A stretch of 64,000 bases of DNA from Saccharothrix saharensis. Its GTDB lineage: Bacteria; Actinomycetota; Actinomycetes; Mycobacteriales; Pseudonocardiaceae. The number at the start of each line of letters is the position of its first letter. Positions within the stretch are counted from its first letter, which is position 1. Both the position numbers and the translations under genes were made by a program. The notes beneath the pieces are model-generated. The model saw nothing but the letters and a program-made list of their open reading frames with translations. It searched no databases and was not told the origin of the DNA. The DNA is taken from the NCBI RefSeq assembly GCF_006716745.1, contig NZ_VFPP01000001.1, positions 7,637,386-7,701,385 of the forward strand. The letters are read 5' to 3'. Below are positions 11,534 through 52,274 of the stretch, one piece after another.

Positions 11534-11645
11534 CCCGAGTGTCGAACGCTCAAGTCCCGAGTGTCGAACGCTCAGATCCCGAGAGTCCTACGTCCAGGAC
11601 CCCTGAGTTCAACGCTCAGGTACACCCCTGAGCGTGGATCAGGGT
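11534..11645. repeat. Intergenic palindromic repeat cluster (GTCGAACGCTC family), copy 1
   Basis: Two direct copies of CCCGAGTGTCGAACGCTCA start at 11534 and 11556. They are followed by two palindromic units, CCTGAG...CTCAGG (11602-11620) and CCTGA...TCAGG (about 11627-11643). Each GAGTGTCGAACGCTC unit is itself an imperfect palindrome centred on TCGA. The 11596-11627 part matches, in reverse complement, most bases of 47327-47357. The cluster lies between the DUF305 gene and the exporter operon and may act as a terminator or a protein-binding array. Confidence 0.75.
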
Positions 11646-46691: not shown

Positions 46692-47254
46692 CCGGGTCGT
46701 ACGAGGAGCGGGGCGGGTACGAGGAGCAGGACGGGGTCGGGGTCGACGACGCGTTGCAGCGCCTGTGGACCCCGCACCGCCTCTCGTACGTGCGCGGGGA
46801 GGGCAAGGCCGTCGGCGACGAGCCGGAGGGGTGCCCGTTCTGCCGGGTGATCGGGCTGGACGACGCCGAGGGGCTGATCCTGGCGCGGGGCGAGCTGGTG
46901 TTCGCGGTGCTGAACCTGTACCCGTACAACCCAGGGCACCTGATGGTGTTGCCGTACCGGCACGTGCCCGACTACACGGACCTGAGCGGGGCGGAGACGG
47001 CGGAGTTCGCCGCGTTCACCCAGAAGGCGATGCGGGTGATCCGGTCCGCCGCCGGGCCGCACGGGTTCAACATCGGCATGAACCAGGGCGTGGTGGCGGG
47101 CGCGGGCATCGCGGCCCACCTGCACCAGCACGTCGTGCCGCGTTGGGGCGGTGACGCCAACTTCATGCCGGTGATCGGCCACACCAAGGTCCTGCCACAA
47201 CTGCTGGGCGAAACCAGGCAACTGCTGGCCGACGCCTGGTCCACCACCAATTGA
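46688..47254 (+). CDS. HIT-domain protein (Ap4A phosphorylase-like, Rv2613c type)
   Basis: A protein of 188 residues overlapping thrS by 4 nt (GTGA). The histidine triad is HLHQHVV, and CPFCRVI near the N-terminus is the zinc-like motif of this subgroup. In M. tuberculosis the homolog next to thrS is a diadenosine tetraphosphate phosphorylase. The following phosphatidylinositol mannoside genes are expected directly after it but lie 6.1 kb away here. The stop is followed at once by a large palindromic repeat. Confidence 0.9.
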
Positions 47255-47429
47255 TACGCGAGTCGAACGCTCAGGTCCCGCGTGTCGAACGCTCGCGACC
47301 CCCGAATTCGACGCTCGGGTTCGGGTGCGGGGTACCTGAGCGTGGAATTCAGGGGTCCTGAGCGTTCGACACGATGGGCCTGAGCGTTCGACACGCGGGA
47401 CCTCGGCGTTCGACGCGCGCAGGTTTTTT
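47255..47429. repeat. Large palindromic repeat cluster (GTCGAACGCTC family), copy 2
   Basis: Three forward units (GTCGAACGCTC at about 47262, 47284, and a variant at 47307) face three inverted units (GAGCGTTCGAC from 47360, 47382 and a variant near 47405). A perfect 21-bp inverted repeat is formed by 47274-47294 and 47382-47402, and an inner 12-bp arm pair (47298-47309 with 47345-47356) has one mismatch. A T-run follows at 47424-47429. It matches the unit family at 11534-11645. It can fold into one very long hairpin and probably terminates the thrS-HIT transcript. Confidence 0.8.
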
Positions 47430-47508
47430 GGGGTCGGGTTGAACGGCGGGTGGGGCTGTCTCGTTCAGACCGGGTGATAACGCCCGGCTGACGAGAGGTG
47501 CACACCCT

Positions 47509-49020
47509 GTGACGGCCATGACCGAGCCCACCGCGGTGCAAGACCTGCCCCCGAGTGACCGCCCGCTGTTCCTGCGGTTCGGCCGGGGTCCGAGCGCCAC
47601 CCCGCCGTTCCACCGCATCCACCACGCCTTCGAAGCCCACGCGGCACGGTCGCCGCACGCGCGGGCGGTCGAGCACGAGGGCGACTGCCTGACCTACGGC
47701 GAACTCGACCACCGCGCGAACGTCGCCGCCGCCGAACTCCTCGACGCGGGCGTGCGCCCGGGCGATCACGTCGGCGTCTTCTTATCCCGCTCGATCCACA
47801 TGGTCGTCGGCATCCTGGCCGTGCTGAAGGTCGGCGCGGCCTACGTGCCGCAGGACGTCCGGATCACCCCGGCACCCCACCTCGCCCACGTGATCCGCAC
47901 CGCCGGCATCACCGTCGTCCTCACCACCACCGAGCACGCCCCCGAGCTGTCCGCACCGAACGTCCTCGCCCTCGACGCGCTCCCGGACCGCCGCGTCGGC
48001 CCACCCACCGCGGCACCGGGCGACACGGCCGTCGTCATCTTCACCTCCGGCACGACCGGCGTGCCCAACGGCGTCCGCGTCACCCACGCCAACCTGTGCA
48101 ACGTCCTGCTCACCGCGCCCGGCGACCTGGGCGTCCGACCGGGCGACCGGGTCGCGCACCTGCTCAACATCGCCTTCGACATGGCGGTGTGGGAACTGTT
48201 CGGCGCACTCGCCCACGGCGCCACGGCGGTCCTCCGCGGCCGCGACATCGCGGCGACCGCGAGGACCGCCACCGTCCTCATCGCCACGCCCGGTGTGCTG
48301 TCCACAGTGGACCCGGCCGCGTGCCCCGACGTCCGCGTGGTCGCCGTCGCCGGCGAGCGCTGCCCCCAACCCCTGGCCGACGCCTGGTCCGCGCGCGCCG
48401 CGTTCCACAACGCCTGCGGCCCCACGGAGGTCACCATCGTCAACACCGTCCAGCGCTACGACCCGGCGACGGGCCGGCTGACCATCGGCCGCCCGATCCC
48501 GAACACGACGGTCTACGTGCTCGACCAGGACCTGCGGCCGTGCCCGATCGGCGAGGTCGGCGAGATGTGGGCGGGCGGCGCCTGCGTCACGGCGGGCTAC
48601 CTCGGCAACGACGTGCTGACCGCCCAGCGCTACCGCCCCGACCCGTTCCTGGGCGGCGACCACCTGATGTTCCGCACCCGCGACCTGGGCCGCTGGACGC
48701 CCGACGGCGAGCTGGAGCACCACGGCCGCACCGACGACCAGGTGAAGGTGCGCGGTTTCCGCGTCGAGCTGGACGCGGTCACCTCCGCGCTGGAGACGAC
48801 CGACGGCTGCGCCCGCGCGACGACCGTCCTGCACGACGGCCGGCTCGTCGGCTTCGTCAGCCCCGCCACCGTGGACGTCCGTGCGGCCACGGACGCCGTG
48901 GCACGCGCCCTGCCCTACTACTGCGTGCCGTCACAGGTCGTCGCGGTGGACGACCTCCCGCTGACCGAACGCGGCAAGGTGGACCGGGCCGCGCTGACGT
49001 CACTGGTGACCGTCGCATGA
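47509..49020 (+). CDS. Stand-alone adenylation-domain enzyme (NRPS A-domain type)
   Basis: An ANL-superfamily enzyme of 503 residues that activates a carboxylic or amino acid as an adenylate. Core motifs are complete: A3 FTSGTTGVPNG (178-188), A4 FDMAVWE (223-229), A5 NACGPTEVTI (301-310), A7 FRTRDLGRW (388-396), A8 GRTDDQVKVRGFRVE (406-420) and the catalytic Lys490 of A10. The pocket shows D, M and W at the first three positions. No carrier-protein or thioesterase domain is attached. The next gene (4-nt overlap) encodes a membrane flavoreductase; fused, the two would resemble fungal TmpL. Start GTG at 47509; ATG at 47518 is an alternative. Confidence 0.85.
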   Translation: MTAMTEPTAVQDLPPSDRPLFLRFGRGPSATPPFHRIHHAFEAHAARSPHARAVEHEGDCLTYGELDHRANVAAAELLDAGVRPGDHVGVFLSRSIHMVVGILAVLKVGAAYVPQDVRITPAPHLAHVIRTAGITVVLTTTEHAPELSAPNVLALDALPDRRVGPPTAAPGDTAVVIFTSGTTGVPNGVRVTHANLCNVLLTAPGDLGVRPGDRVAHLLNIAFDMAVWELFGALAHGATAVLRGRDIAATARTATVLIATPGVLSTVDPAACPDVRVVAVAGERCPQPLADAWSARAAFHNACGPTEVTIVNTVQRYDPATGRLTIGRPIPNTTVYVLDQDLRPCPIGEVGEMWAGGACVTAGYLGNDVLTAQRYRPDPFLGGDHLMFRTRDLGRWTPDGELEHHGRTDDQVKVRGFRVELDAVTSALETTDGCARATTVLHDGRLVGFVSPATVDVRAATDAVARALPYYCVPSQVVAVDDLPLTERGKVDRAALTSLVTVA

Positions 49021-50231
49021 CCACCACGCGAACCGACGCGCCGTCGGCGTGGCGGCTCAGGCTGCGCAGGCGCCCGTTCACCCACCACAACCGGCTCGCC
49101 GCCGCGGTCGTCGGGGCCAACGCGGTCGCGGCGTTCGGCGTGGACGACGCGCGAGCGCTCGCGGACCTGGTCGTGCTCAACGTGGCCCTGGCCGTGCTGG
49201 TCCGCCAGCAGCACGTGATCAACCTGCTGTTCCGGCTCGCGACCGGCGCGCCGACGTCGTGGCCGCTGCGGGTGCGCTGGACGCTGGGCAAGGTCTACCA
49301 CTTCGGCGGGCTGCACGTCGGCGCCGCCGTGTCCGCCACCGCCTGGTTCGCGGTGCTGGCGGTGGTCCGCGACGACCCGCTCACGTGGGCGGTCCTCGCC
49401 CTGATGGTCGCGATGGTCGTGTTCGCCCTGCCGAACCTGCGCGCACGGCGGCACGACGTGTTCGAGCGCGTGCACCGCTTCGCGGGCTGGACCGTGCTCG
49501 CCCTGTTCGCCGCGGACTCGGCGCGGCAACCCGGTTTCGTCGGCTCCACCGCGTTCTGGGCGCTCCTGCTGGTGGTGGGGAGCGTGGTGCTGCCGTGGAC
49601 GCGGTTGCGCCGCGTGCCGGTGCTGATCACCCGCCCGTCGCGGCACGTCGCGCTGGTGTCGTTCGACTACGGCGTGACGCCGTTCGCCGGGTCGTCGACC
49701 GCGGTGAGCCGACGCCCGCTGCTGGAGTGGCACTCGTTCGCCAACGTGCCGACGCCCGGCCGCAGCGGGTTCCGGCTCACGATCTCCCGCGCGGGCGACT
49801 GGACCGGCTCGCTGATCGACGACCTGCCGACCCACCTGTGGGTCAAGGGCGTGCCCACGGCCGGGGTGGGCAACATCGACCGGCTGTTCACCAGGGTGGT
49901 GTGGGTGGCGACCGGCAGCGGCATCGGCCCGTGCCTGCCCCACCTGCTGTCGGGGGAGACGCCTGCGCGCCTGGTGTGGTCCACCCGCACGCCGCGCGAG
50001 ACCTACGGCGACGACCTGGTGGACGAGATCGAGGCCGTCCAGCCGGACGCCCTGGTCTGGGACACCGTCCGCGACGGCAAGCCCGACCTGGTGGAGCTGG
50101 CGCTGCGCGCCCACCGGGAGTTCGACGCCGAAGCGGTGATCTGCATCTCGAACAAGAAGACGACCTGGCACGTCGTGGAGGAGCTGGAAGCGCGGGGCGT
50201 GCCCGCGTTCGGCGCCATCTGGGACTCGTGA
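49017..50231 (+). CDS. Six-helix membrane flavoreductase, NADPH-oxidase/ferric-reductase-like
   Basis: A 404-residue protein with six predicted helices (about 27-43, 50-70, 93-117, 122-140, 153-170, 176-194) followed by a soluble reductase module. EWHSFAN (237-243) and RAGDWT (258-263) correspond to the HPFT and GDWT-like FAD-binding segments of NADPH oxidases, and ATGSGIGP (298-305) is the ferredoxin-reductase NAD(P)-binding loop. Membrane histidines (His66, His95, His100 and His153) could bind heme, but this is unproven. The stop/start overlap with the adenylation gene shows coupled expression. It probably moves electrons from NAD(P)H across the membrane or to the adenylated product. Confidence 0.78.
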   Translation: MTTTRTDAPSAWRLRLRRRPFTHHNRLAAAVVGANAVAAFGVDDARALADLVVLNVALAVLVRQQHVINLLFRLATGAPTSWPLRVRWTLGKVYHFGGLHVGAAVSATAWFAVLAVVRDDPLTWAVLALMVAMVVFALPNLRARRHDVFERVHRFAGWTVLALFAADSARQPGFVGSTAFWALLLVVGSVVLPWTRLRRVPVLITRPSRHVALVSFDYGVTPFAGSSTAVSRRPLLEWHSFANVPTPGRSGFRLTISRAGDWTGSLIDDLPTHLWVKGVPTAGVGNIDRLFTRVVWVATGSGIGPCLPHLLSGETPARLVWSTRTPRETYGDDLVDEIEAVQPDALVWDTVRDGKPDLVELALRAHREFDAEAVICISNKKTTWHVVEELEARGVPAFGAIWDS

Positions 50232-50241
50232 GGAGACCGGC

Positions 50242-51045
50242 GTGGACTACTCGACCTTGCTCATCGACGAACGGGACGGCGTCACGACGGTCACCGTGTC
50301 CCGGCCGGCCGCGCGCAACGCGTTGTCCGGCCGCGTGCTGGCCGAGCTCGACCACTACCTGTCCGGTGTCCTCGCCGGTCCGGCGCCGCGCGGGATCGTC
50401 CTCACCGGAGCGCCCGGCCCGGCGTTCGTGGCGGGCGCGGACATCCGCGAGATGGCCGTGATGACGCCGGACGAGGGCGAGCGGTTCGGCGCGCTGGGCC
50501 AACGCGTCACCCTGCTGCTGGAGGAGGTGCCGTGCCCGGTCGTGGCGTGCGTGGACGGCTACGCGCTCGGCGGTGGCTGCGAGGTGGTGCTGGCGTGCGA
50601 CTTCGCCTACGCGACCCGCCGTTCGGTGTTCGGCCAGCCGGAGGTGGTGCTGGGCCTGATCCCGGGCTTCGGCGGGTGCGTGCGGCTCCAGCGCCTGGTC
50701 GGTCCCGCGGTCGCGCGGGAGCTGATCTACACCGGCAGGCACGTCGACGCGCCCGAGGCGTTGCGGCTCGGTCTCGTCACGGCCGTGTTCGACGACCGCG
50801 ATGAGATGCTGGCCGCCGCACGCGCGGTGCTCGGCCGGATCGCGGGCAACTCGGCCACGGCGGTGTCGCTGGCCAAGGCCGCGGTGAACGCCGCCCGGGG
50901 CACGGCCGTCGCCGCCGGGCTGGCGTTCGAGCTCGACGCGTTCCGCGCGGCGTTCGGCACCGAGGACATGCGCGAGGGCACGGCGGCGTTCCTCGCCAAG
51001 CGACGGCCCGCGTTCCGCGCGGGGGAACCGCTGCTCCAGGACTAG
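50242..51045 (+). CDS. Enoyl-CoA hydratase/isomerase family protein
   Basis: A crotonase of 267 residues, GTG start after GGAG, 10 nt after the reductase stop. The oxyanion-hole segments FVAGADIREM and GYALGGGCE are present, and both catalytic glutamates (Glu114 and Glu134, 20 residues apart as in rat hydratase) are kept. It can therefore hydrate enoyl-CoA or act as an isomerase. Its place behind the adenylation and membrane reductase genes suggests a common acyl substrate. A fully separate beta-oxidation role remains possible. Confidence 0.85.
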   Translation: MDYSTLLIDERDGVTTVTVSRPAARNALSGRVLAELDHYLSGVLAGPAPRGIVLTGAPGPAFVAGADIREMAVMTPDEGERFGALGQRVTLLLEEVPCPVVACVDGYALGGGCEVVLACDFAYATRRSVFGQPEVVLGLIPGFGGCVRLQRLVGPAVARELIYTGRHVDAPEALRLGLVTAVFDDRDEMLAAARAVLGRIAGNSATAVSLAKAAVNAARGTAVAAGLAFELDAFRAAFGTEDMREGTAAFLAKRRPAFRAGEPLLQD

Positions 51046-51075
51046 CCGAGGAGGTGCGCGATCAACGACAGTCAC

Positions 51076-51570
51076 ATGGCCCTGCTGCGCTCCCTCCACG
51101 ACGAGCACGCGCCCGCGCTGTGGCGGTACGTACGCCGGCTGACCGGGGACGACGAGCTGTCCCGCGACGTGGTGCAGGAAGCGCTGCTGCGGGCGTGGCG
51201 CAACCCCAAGGTGCTGGAACAGGGCGCGGCGGCGGCGCGGGCGTGGCTCTACACGGTGGCCCGCAACGTGGTGATCGACGAGCGGCGCAGCGCCCGCGCC
51301 CGCTGGGAGGTCGGGTCGGAGCGGCTGCCCGAGCGGGCGCGGTCCGACCACAGCGACGCGGCGTTGGACGCCTGGTTGGTGGCCGACGTGCTCACCCAGT
51401 TGACGCCGGAGCACCGCGCGGTGATCGTGCGTGCGTACTACATGGGCCAGTCGGTAGCCGAGCTGGCCGTCGCACTGGACCTGCCGGAGGGAACCGTGAA
51501 GTCCCGGCTGCACTACGGTCTGCGGGCGCTGCGGCTGGCGCTGGAGGAGAAAGGGGTCACCGGACGTTGA
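51076..51570 (+). CDS. SigL-type ECF RNA polymerase sigma factor
   Basis: An ECF sigma factor of 164 residues when counted from the ATG at 51076. Region 2 (DELSRDVVQEALLRAWRN) and region 4 (GQSVAELAVALDLPEGTVKS, RLHYGLRALR) closely resemble mycobacterial SigL. The GGAGGTG ribosome binding site (51050-51056) is 19 nt from this ATG, but only 4 nt before an in-frame ATC at 51061 that would add NDSHM; a rare ATC start is possible. The next gene overlaps by 4 nt and encodes its anti-sigma factor. In mycobacteria SigL controls surface and disulfide-related functions. Confidence 0.88.
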   Translation: MALLRSLHDEHAPALWRYVRRLTGDDELSRDVVQEALLRAWRNPKVLEQGAAAARAWLYTVARNVVIDERRSARARWEVGSERLPERARSDHSDAALDAWLVADVLTQLTPEHRAVIVRAYYMGQSVAELAVALDLPEGTVKSRLHYGLRALRLALEEKGVTGR

Positions 51571-52274
51571 GCACGCCAGTCGATCCGTACCGGGACTGGG
51601 GTGCCGCGTACGTCCTCGGTTCGCTGTCGCCCGGCGAACGGCGGGAGTTCGAGCAGCACCTGGCCGGGTGCCCGGAGTGCTCGGGGGACGTGGCGTCCTT
51701 CGCGGGCGTGCCCGGCATCCTCTCGGTGGTGCCCCGGGACCGCGCGCTCGACCTGCTGGAGCCCGACGAGGAGGCCGACGAACCGCCGCCCGCGCTGCTC
51801 ACCGGGCTGGTCGCGGCGGAGCGGTCGCGCCGGTGGCGGACACGGGTCCTGGTGGCCGCGGCGCTGGTCGTGGCGGCGTTCCTGGGGGCGGCGGTCGCGC
51901 TGGCCGTGCGACCGGCCGCCCCCGACGCCACGACCGCCACGTCCGCCGCGCCGCCCGCGCCGGACGTGACGCTGGACCAGACGATGCCCAGCCCGGTGAC
52001 GGCCAGCGTGCGGCTGGTGGACGAGGCGTGGGGCACCCGGATCGAGGTGCTGTGCTCGTACGCCGTGCCGGACGGCCCCCCGCCGCCCGTCTTCGCCTAC
52101 TCCCTGCACGTGGTCGCGGCCGACGGCACCCGGACCCAGGTCGCGACCTGGACCGCCGGTCCCGGTTCCACCACCCGGCCCACCGCCACGACCGGGCTGC
52201 CCCGGGCCGACATCACCGGTATCGAGATCAGATTGGTGCAGAAAGACCTGGTCCTGCTCCGGGTCACCCTCTGA
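51567..52274 (+). CDS. Zinc-type anti-sigma factor (RslA-like)
   Basis: A membrane anti-sigma factor of 235 residues, TTG start inside the sigma stop (TTGA). The ZAS motif His31-x3-Cys35-x2-Cys38 (EQHLAGCPEC) binds zinc and the sigma factor; a single helix at about 93-114 anchors it; the C-terminal part (from SPVTASVRLVDEAWG) is the extracytoplasmic anti-sigma-K-like fold (RskA_C). Loss of zinc or membrane signals would release the sigma factor. Co-translated with it. Confidence 0.87.
   Translation: MSTPVDPYRDWGAAYVLGSLSPGERREFEQHLAGCPECSGDVASFAGVPGILSVVPRDRALDLLEPDEEADEPPPALLTGLVAAERSRRWRTRVLVAAALVVAAFLGAAVALAVRPAAPDATTATSAAPPAPDVTLDQTMPSPVTASVRLVDEAWGTRIEVLCSYAVPDGPPPPVFAYSLHVVAADGTRTQVATWTAGPGSTTRPTATTGLPRADITGIEIRLVQKDLVLLRVTL

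What the first reader, a model, noticed from the sequence alone, without database searches (positions are those of the whole stretch)
47509..51045. Split TmpL-like cassette: adenylation enzyme + six-helix NADPH-oxidase-like reductase + enoyl-CoA hydratase
Three tightly coupled genes join an NRPS-type adenylation enzyme without carrier protein, a six-helix protein with NADPH-oxidase-like FAD/NAD(P) motifs, and an active crotonase. Fused, the first two would have the domain order of TmpL, a fungal transmembrane protein (AMP-binding, six helices, FAD/NAD(P) binding) tied to redox control and virulence. The cassette here looks like a bacterial, three-gene version whose substrate, electron acceptor and product are unknown.
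Basis: partly seen in the sequence, partly recalled or inferred. Interest (0 to 1): 0.72.

Follow-up and report, generated by a model that had tools for sequence, protein, structure and literature searches.

The report
Bacterial counterpart of fungal TmpL
Three neighbouring bacterial genes, kept together in the same order in very different bacteria, encode an enzyme that probably activates the amino acid alanine, a membrane electron-transfer protein and a hydratase, and they look like the bacterial form of a fungal protein, TmpL, whose chemistry is still unknown.

Summary
A (47509-49020), reductase (49017-50231) and crotonase (50242-51045) are intact and tightly coupled. Of 80 kept loci from four phyla, 79 have A directly upstream of the reductase and 75 have the crotonase downstream. 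Starting from A, 30 of 30 fetched loci carry the reductase. Natural A-reductase fusions of 1005-1035 residues occur in some Bacteroidota and actinobacteria, the architecture and length of fungal TmpL; a putative enoyl-CoA hydratase gene also neighbours A. nidulans tmpB. The modelled reductase has the NADPH-oxidase fold but seems to keep only inner-heme histidines. The A pocket code, DMWIAAAIVK, equals that of Salinispora Sare0718, published as L-alanine-specific and flanked by a hypothetical gene and an enoyl-CoA hydratase, so the first substrate is probably L-alanine. In Saccharothrix and relatives an ECF sigma/anti-sigma pair follows, with a conserved promoter motif before A. Acceptor and product remain unknown; no fungal sequence could be aligned. 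A new bacterial variant of a known but unexplained fungal system.

The parts
47440..47466 (+). ECF-type promoter motif TGAAC-N12-TGTCTCGTTC upstream of A
   Evidence: exact match in 22 of 25 sigma-bearing loci and 0 of the other 55; once in each of 10 of 12 cassette-bearing genus genomes, 0 of 13 without
47509..49020 (+). stand-alone NRPS-type adenylation enzyme, pocket code DMWIAAAIVK, likely L-alanine
   Evidence: published Sare0718 has the same code
49017..50231 (+). membrane flavoprotein with NADPH-oxidase fold (TmpA-like); H100 and H153 candidate inner-heme ligands; GSGIGP NAD(P) motif
50242..51045 (+). crotonase / enoyl-CoA hydratase with both catalytic Glu (E114, E134)
51076..51570 (+). 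ECF sigma factor, linked to the cassette in this clade
51567..52274 (+). putative zinc-finger anti-sigma factor (zf-HC2; HxxxCxxC read in the sequence)

Best explanation
This is a bacterial TmpL-class operon. SHOWN by sequence, model or published assay: A is an adenylating enzyme of one tight clade with an almost invariant pocket; a Salinispora enzyme with the same pocket code and matching gene neighbours is specific for L-alanine in vitro; the reductase is a membrane protein whose model has the NADPH-oxidase fold with an FAD/NAD(P) module; the crotonase keeps its catalytic residues; an ECF sigma/anti-sigma pair and a conserved promoter motif accompany the operon in this clade. INFERRED: A makes alanyl-AMP and passes it on, probably as a CoA thioester since the partner is a CoA-type hydratase. 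The reductase takes NAD(P)H electrons through FAD to a single inner heme (H100/H153) and spends them near the cytosolic face of the membrane on the activated alanine or on oxygen used to oxidise it, not across the membrane as in true NADPH oxidases. The crotonase then adds or removes water on the resulting unsaturated acyl-CoA. The product would be a small alanine-derived metabolite, perhaps a signal or stress compound, made when the sigma factor is released. Confidence covers the identity and the alanine step; the later chemistry alone is nearer 0.3.
For: Synteny: A upstream in 79 of 80 loci, crotonase downstream in 75 of 80, order always A-reductase-crotonase. Reciprocal search from A: 30 of 30 fetched loci have the reductase. 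Fusions: 5 of 80 loci, all Bacteroidota, 1005-1018 aa; 3 of 30 loci of the family of G403, one checked as a 1035-aa ORF. A and reductase identities correlate, r 0.94 overall and 0.84 between genera, 75 rows. Cassette A enzymes (42 rows used of 80) form a clade (support 0.974) excluding the 29 own-genome A domains used. Pocket code nearly constant in 79 of 79 readable rows plus 30 of 30. Sare0718: code DMWIAAAIVK, L-Ala specific among 20 amino acids, Km 0.116 mM; neighbours sare0716 enoyl-CoA hydratase, sare0717 hypothetical, sare0719 PPTase; L246 has PPTase-A-reductase-crotonase on one strand. Spacing I310-K490 in the window is 180, as between I315 and K495 printed for TmpB (residue numbers of the window protein). 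Fold. Heme. Sigma and promoter. Fungal parallels.
Against: No fungal sequence was available, so homology to TmpL rests on architecture, length, the GSGIGP motif, the neighbouring hydratase and a published tree. The fungal FAD motif string RLHFD is in 0 of 81 bacterial reductases, and the D-to-G spacing in A is 80 here versus 71 from the positions printed for TmpB. The pocket looks as if built for a larger residue, so the published alanine result is surprising and rests on one colorimetric study. The 80 loci are the best-scoring of at least 341; 7 of 29 reductase places in the family search, the more distant ones, have no A beside them. The crotonase is absent beside 4 loci of 80 not cut by a contig end, and from the flank of 6 of 22 A-bearing family places, so it may not be essential. 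The heme count is inferred from alignment and models, not coordinates or spectra: the first ten residues of the fragment model that fix the register have mean pLDDT 54, and 16 of 81 rows do hold two H-X12-14-H pairs in their first 230 residues.
Confidence: 0.72

Rival explanations
1. A loading part of a dispersed NRPS: alanine is activated and handed to a carrier protein encoded elsewhere; the reductase and crotonase tailor the tethered residue.
For: A is of NRPS type (TIGR01733 above cut-off); a 4'-phosphopantetheinyl transferase lies beside A in Salinispora-like loci L246 and L248.
Against: No fourth gene shared across phyla appears among the 40 widest ORF clusters around the cassette; A stands apart from 29 own-genome A domains in a tree and carries odd core motifs (PNG for PKG, CGPTE for YGPTE); fusion to the reductase points to a direct hand-over.
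Confidence: 0.13
2. The reductase is an ordinary NADPH oxidase or ferric reductase that makes superoxide or reduces iron; A and crotonase make an unrelated compound from the same operon.
For: Full-length match to NOX structures; fungal TmpL is needed to regulate reactive oxygen (abstract); 16 of 81 rows hold two H-X12-14-H pairs.
Against: A His at the TM3 outer-heme position (residue 114) is present in 1 of 81 rows, and the published NOX FAD and NADPH patterns match 0 of 81; fusion and co-variation with A.
Confidence: 0.1
3. Convergence: bacterial cassette and fungal TmpL assembled the same parts independently.
For: No direct alignment was possible; RLHFD not found.
Against: Stand-alone A domains of Salinispora and Hahella nest in the ChNPS12 clade in a published tree, presumably of the Sare0718 kind, though the passages seen do not name the genes; GSGIGP is invariant in 81 of 81; hydratase neighbour in Aspergilli.
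Confidence: 0.05

Closest known systems
Fungal TmpL / TmpB / ChNPS12 (A domain - six helices - FAD/NAD(P))
   Same: Domain order, lack of T and C domains, fused length (989-1025 aa in fungi, 1005-1035 in bacterial fusions), GSGIGP motif, enoyl-CoA hydratase neighbour for A. nidulans tmpB
   Different: Split into two genes in the window; FAD motif string differs; one pocket spacing differs by 9 residues; sigma factor beside the operon
Sare0718 of Salinispora arenicola, alanine-activating stand-alone A domain (PMC3360062)
   Same: Identical pocket code; neighbours a hypothetical protein and an enoyl-CoA hydratase
   Different: Published as an isolated A domain; in the parts I read the neighbouring hypothetical gene is not recognised as a membrane reductase, nor the group as a module
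NADPH oxidase family (SpNOX, NOX2)
   Same: Six-helix plus FAD/NAD(P) fold; TM3 inner-heme position appears to be His
   Different: Outer-heme TM3 His absent in 80 of 81 rows; FAD and NADPH motifs outside the published NOX patterns
Single-heme FRD proteins (STEAP, YedZ)
   Same: Fewer than four heme histidines
   Different: Those keep the surface-proximal heme; here the cytosol-proximal one appears kept, and the FAD/NAD(P) module is C-terminal

Membership tests
TmpL / ChNPS12 | NRPS-type adenylation domain without thiolation or condensation domain | tested here: met
   Pfam finds only AMP-binding domains in P0001; A ends after GKVDR
TmpL / ChNPS12 | Six membrane helices followed by FAD/NAD(P) module | tested here: met
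   (model and fold match)
TmpL / ChNPS12 | NAD(P) motif GSGIGP | tested here: met
   81 of 81 rows; motif from PMC2766074
TmpL / ChNPS12 | FAD motif, printed as RLHFD for TmpL | tested here: inconclusive
   string in 0 of 81; RLT[IV]S in 80 of 81; equivalence cannot be judged without the fungal sequence
TmpL / ChNPS12 | A and reductase in one polypeptide | tested here: not met
   two genes in the window; met in 5 of 80 loci and 3 of 30. The window is therefore called a split counterpart, not a TmpL protein
TmpL / ChNPS12 | Sequence homology or tree position with fungal members | not testable with these tools
   no fungal sequences held; a published tree places Salinispora and Hahella single A domains in the clade
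NADPH oxidase (NOX) | Two bis-histidine hemes in TM3 and TM5 | tested here: not met
   TM3 outer-position His in 1 of 81 rows; a looser test, two H-X12-14-H pairs anywhere in the first 230 residues, is met by 16 of 81; H100 maps to SpNOX 69 and NOX2 98-102 if there is no gap, from a low-confidence start of the model
NADPH oxidase (NOX) | FAD and NADPH motifs as in the published bacterial NOX screen | tested here: not met
   0 of 81 for each
NADPH oxidase (NOX) | Fold | tested here: met
Sare0718-type A enzyme | Pocket code and gene neighbours | tested here: met
   code identical; order PPTase-A-reductase-crotonase in L246 matches sare0719-0716; the window has reductase and crotonase after A and a HIT gene, no PPTase, before it
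Sare0718-type A enzyme | Activation of L-alanine by the window enzyme | not testable with these tools
   needs assay
Enoyl-CoA hydratase | Both catalytic glutamates | tested here: met
   E114 and E134 in the at-least-97%-conserved set of 76 rows; roles recalled

The most novel reading that the evidence does not exclude
The cassette is an ancient module shared by bacteria and fungi and a new enzyme system: an alanine-activating enzyme feeds a membrane NOX-fold protein that has given up its outer heme, so electrons stop inside the membrane and are used to convert the activated amino acid itself. The crotonase finishes a small diffusible alanine-derived product that bacteria switch on with a single-target sigma factor and that fungi use as a developmental signal.
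Probability: 0.3. Interest if true: 0.88.

Novelty: new variant of a known kind. Interest (0 to 1): 0.72.

Why it matters
[quoted passage not shown] A simple, split, single-operon version in culturable bacteria, with a likely first substrate (L-alanine), a hydratase partner and an apparently dedicated sigma switch, makes the chemistry open to ordinary biochemistry and gene knock-out. It also suggests what the hypothetical gene beside Sare0718 encodes, and points to a NOX-fold family that a published NOX motif filter would exclude.

Tried and rejected
Considered and dropped: (1) an aromatic substrate, guessed from the pocket's likeness to the phenylalanine code (recalled); replaced by L-alanine after reading PMC3360062. 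(2) A non-heme di-iron site at H95/H100/H146/E150/H153: not excluded, but heme is simpler, since H100 maps near the SpNOX inner ligand and E150 is shared with ferric reductases. (3) Two independent recruitments of the crotonase: the 55-row tree splits cassette crotonases in two clades with own-genome paralogues between them, with a long-branch warning, but a 28-row tree puts them together with support 34; undecided. (4) Heme ligands by profile comparison of the helix region alone: weak (probability 3.8), and it matched TM4-5 here to TM2-3 there, a pseudo-repeat. (5) Comparison with short Ferric_reduct proteins: no match. (6) Single-sequence PDB search with the reductase: one hit only, an enoyl-CoA hydratase at E 0.021 over the helices, taken as chance. 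(7) A fourth gene conserved across phyla: none seen among the 40 widest clusters of ORFs of 90 aa or more; lineage-specific neighbours only. (8) Sigma-70 promoters and terminators in 47200-51100: none above chance. (9) Frequency outside Actinomycetota by genome draws: not obtained, so none is given for the other phyla.

Rows dropped before counts: alignment A2 leaves out L027 (a shortened copy) and L029 (very distant) that were in A1; one A row (L067, 97 residues at a contig edge) has gaps at nine of the ten pocket positions, and L103 has no A row; the 90% identity cut for sigma orthologues was mine (15 of 25 genomes pass the E-value, 3 of them only by paralogues near 49%). Trees used subsets: 43 of 76 crotonases and 12 of 14 paralogues, 42 of 80 A enzymes, 48 of 80 rows, 22 of 76 crotonases and 6 paralogues. 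The identity comparison used the 75 rows with all three genes. The phylum draw scored only 4 candidates per genome, so 3 of 396 may be low.

Papers: PMC2766074 (sections 6, 7 and passages), PMC4804170 (sections 15, 18 and passages), PMC2823734 (section 7 and passages), PMC3360062 (parts 1 and 2 of 5 and passages), PMC5118889, PMC5561558, PMC11031084, PMC5676040, PMC11564096, PMC3591440 (passages only). The others were seen as search listings. Soid-Raggi 2006 and the NOX2 ligand H101 are recalled only. I saw no report of a bacterial TmpL system in ten searches of an open-licence library; most subscription journals are not in it.
Full report
OBSERVATION. A runs 47509-49020 from a GTG start, the reductase 49017-50231 with an ATGA overlap, and the crotonase 50242-51045. 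A matches the AMP-binding family at 1.6e-67 and the NRPS amino acid adenylation model above its cut-off; the crotonase matches ECH_1 at 2.4e-55; the reductase has no significant Pfam or NCBIfam match. With relaxed limits its best Pfam hits are NAD_binding_1 (E 0.22) and Ferric_reduct (E 0.43), and the only PDB sequence matches of its profile up to E 1 are NOX2 chains at E 0.25: weak hints in the right direction. A single-sequence PDB search gave one hit, an enoyl-CoA hydratase at E 0.021, which I take as chance.

HOW MANY HEMES. SpNOX holds its inner heme with H69 and H129 and its outer heme with H83 (H82 in another paper) and H142 (passages). A second model starting at residue 90 aligns residue 90 with SpNOX 59 and with NOX2 88-92 depending on the entry. 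If there is no gap in ten residues, H100 falls on SpNOX 69 and NOX2 98-102, next to or on the inner ligand and far from the outer one. The start of that model is poor (mean pLDDT 54 for its first ten residues), so the register is approximate. H100 and H153 are invariant in 81 of 81 aligned reductases, as are H95 and H146. At the outer position of TM3 (114) a His occurs in 1 of 81; in TM5 position 167 is His in 41 of 81 and Asp in the window. Against this, 16 of 81 rows have some His between 101 and 125, and 16 of 81 hold two H-X12-14-H pairs in the first 230 residues. I infer one heme at most in most members, near the cytosolic face. The placing of H153 rests on motif alignment, not on coordinates, which the tools do not give. 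The motif filters printed for a bacterial NOX screen match 0 of 81 for either FAD or NADPH, so such a screen would pass this family over.

THE GENES TRAVEL TOGETHER. A scan of GTDB genomes with a 13-row reductase profile found at least 341 relatives; the best 80 were kept. A lies directly upstream on the same strand in 79 of 80 (the other is cut by the contig edge) and the crotonase directly downstream in 75 of 80 (absent in two Crossiella and two Kribbella loci, contig end in one). These come from Actinomycetota, Chloroflexota, Bacteroidota and Pseudomonadota; a concatenated A plus reductase tree of 48 of the 80 rows keeps the phyla nearly apart. The sample favours close relatives. In the family draw, 27 of 200 genomes have the reductase; of 29 distinct places 22 have A within the 1.5-kb flank and 16 of those 22 the crotonase. 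The seven without A are more distant, TmpA-like orphans; six of the seven were also read in longer stretches. Other draws: 3 of 396 across the phylum, including the window's own genome, with only 4 candidates scored per genome; 11 of 200 in the family of G222; 12 of 25 in the genus. Starting from A in the family of G403, 32 of 300 genomes match at E up to 1e-150, and 30 of 30 fetched loci carry the reductase beside it; their 1.5-kb flanks are too short for the crotonase (0 of 30), which is present in 5 of 5 longer stretches. A and reductase identities correlate at r 0.94, or 0.84 between genera; with the crotonase 0.72-0.73 and 0.46-0.48.

NATURAL FUSIONS. In Aquimarina (three), Splendidivirga and a Saprospiraceae bin, A and reductase are one reading frame of 1005-1018 residues (5 of 80). 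Three of 30 loci in the family of G403 are fused too, one checked as a 1035-residue frame. Fungal TmpL is 994-1025 and TmpB 989 residues.

WHAT A ACTIVATES. Reading the ten pocket positions by motif anchors (numbering recalled) gives DMWIAAAIVK in the window and nearly the same in 79 of 79 readable rows; only position 322 varies much (A, S, C or G). The 30 further loci agree. The 29 own-genome A domains compared vary widely at these positions and lie outside the cassette clade (support 0.974). The clade carries PNG for PKG and CGPTE for YGPTE. After this I read PMC3360062 (parts 1 and 2 of 5 and passages): Sare0718 of Salinispora arenicola has the code DMWIAAAIVK, was specific for L-alanine among 20 amino acids (Km 0.116 mM, kcat 12.6 per min), and is next to sare0717 (hypothetical), sare0716 (enoyl-CoA hydratase/isomerase) and sare0719 (phosphopantetheinyl transferase). 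Locus L246, from a 5,183,331-base chromosome that I recall as the length of Salinispora tropica CNB-440, has transferase, A, reductase and crotonase in that order on one strand. L247 has an A gene of 1671 bp, the published length of sare0718, and the code DMWIAAAIVK. So sare0717 is very probably the reductase. The published screen covered the 20 proteinogenic amino acids; D-alanine is not mentioned in the parts I read.

LINK TO FUNGI. TmpL has the order A, six helices, FAD/NAD(P), no T or C domain, and the motif GSGIGP; that motif is in 81 of 81 bacterial reductases. A. [quoted passage not shown] The pocket residues printed for TmpB (D, W, C, G, I, K) are all found at the matching positions of the bacterial clade, the C in 14 of 79 rows. 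A published tree places stand-alone A domains of Salinispora and Hahella inside the ChNPS12 clade. [quoted passage not shown] Against: I could not align a fungal sequence, RLHFD is absent, and a 9-residue spacing difference remains.

REGULATION. The next two genes are an ECF sigma factor and a zf-HC2 protein, a likely anti-sigma factor. The sigma gene follows the cassette in 25 of 80 loci, an adjacent anti-sigma match in 22 of those. In the genus, orthologues at 90% identity or more are in exactly the 12 of 25 genomes that have the reductase. By eye, upstream regions of six Saccharothrix and seven Lentzea rows, aligned apart, share a block, TGAAC-N12-TGTCTCGTTC, with one mismatch in L036. It is exact in 22 of 25 sigma-bearing loci and 0 of the other 55 (a few of which are cut short upstream), and occurs once in each of 10 of the 12 cassette genomes of the genus and in none of the 13 others, with no hit of the reversed control (Fisher tests, inflated by kinship). 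A dedicated, perhaps single-target, sigma circuit is the natural reading; no expression was measured.

MECHANISM. Shown: module, modelled fold, conserved residues, pocket identity with an alanine enzyme, sigma linkage. Inferred: alanyl-AMP or alanyl-CoA is passed to the reductase, electrons from NAD(P)H stop at one inner heme and serve a reaction on the activated alanine or with oxygen near the cytosolic face, and the crotonase adds or removes water. The Aspergillus authors propose that the fungal oxidoreductase domain oxidises the activated amino acid. The rivals (dispersed NRPS, plain NOX, convergence) are less likely but open.

VERDICT. What is added is the trans-phylum conservation, bacterial fusions, a likely substrate from a 2012 paper on Sare0718, probable loss of the outer heme, and the sigma switch. 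Product and acceptor remain the open question.

Noticed in passing
window 47257-47419: Intergenic element between the HIT gene and A: units of 22 nt related to CCTGAGCGTTCGACACG in direct and inverted array (64-nt arms, 86% complementary), with two further copies at 11538-11576; 6 matches in the window with up to 2 mismatches against 0.09 expected.
   Followed up: partly
L114-L119 (unnamed relatives): Orphan TmpA-like reductases at 33-52% identity in the same family, with no match to A or crotonase beside them; possible bacterial parallel of fungal TmpA.
   Followed up: partly
L034-L113, crotonase genes: Cassette crotonases fall in two well supported clades; the Saprospiraceae locus L064 carries the type of the Pseudonocardiaceae although its A and reductase sit with Bacteroidota.
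   Followed up: partly
L040: Record titled Rhodococcus rhodnii NRRL B-16535 nests with Kribbella, Kibdelosporangium and Amycolatopsis in the A plus reductase tree, and its contig length equals that of a contig of genome G093, which the tool places in the window's family; the label may be wrong.
   Followed up: no
P0001 residues 186-188 and 303-307: Core motifs of the adenylation enzyme differ from the NRPS norm in the clade: PNG for PKG (41 of 41 readable rows, against K in 29 of 29 own-genome A domains) and CGPTE for YGPTE (C in 41 of 41, Y in 27 of 29).
   Followed up: partly
L119 (G048): A shortened reductase copy lacking the stretch with the NAD(P) motif, next to an unidentified 512-residue ORF.
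   Followed up: no
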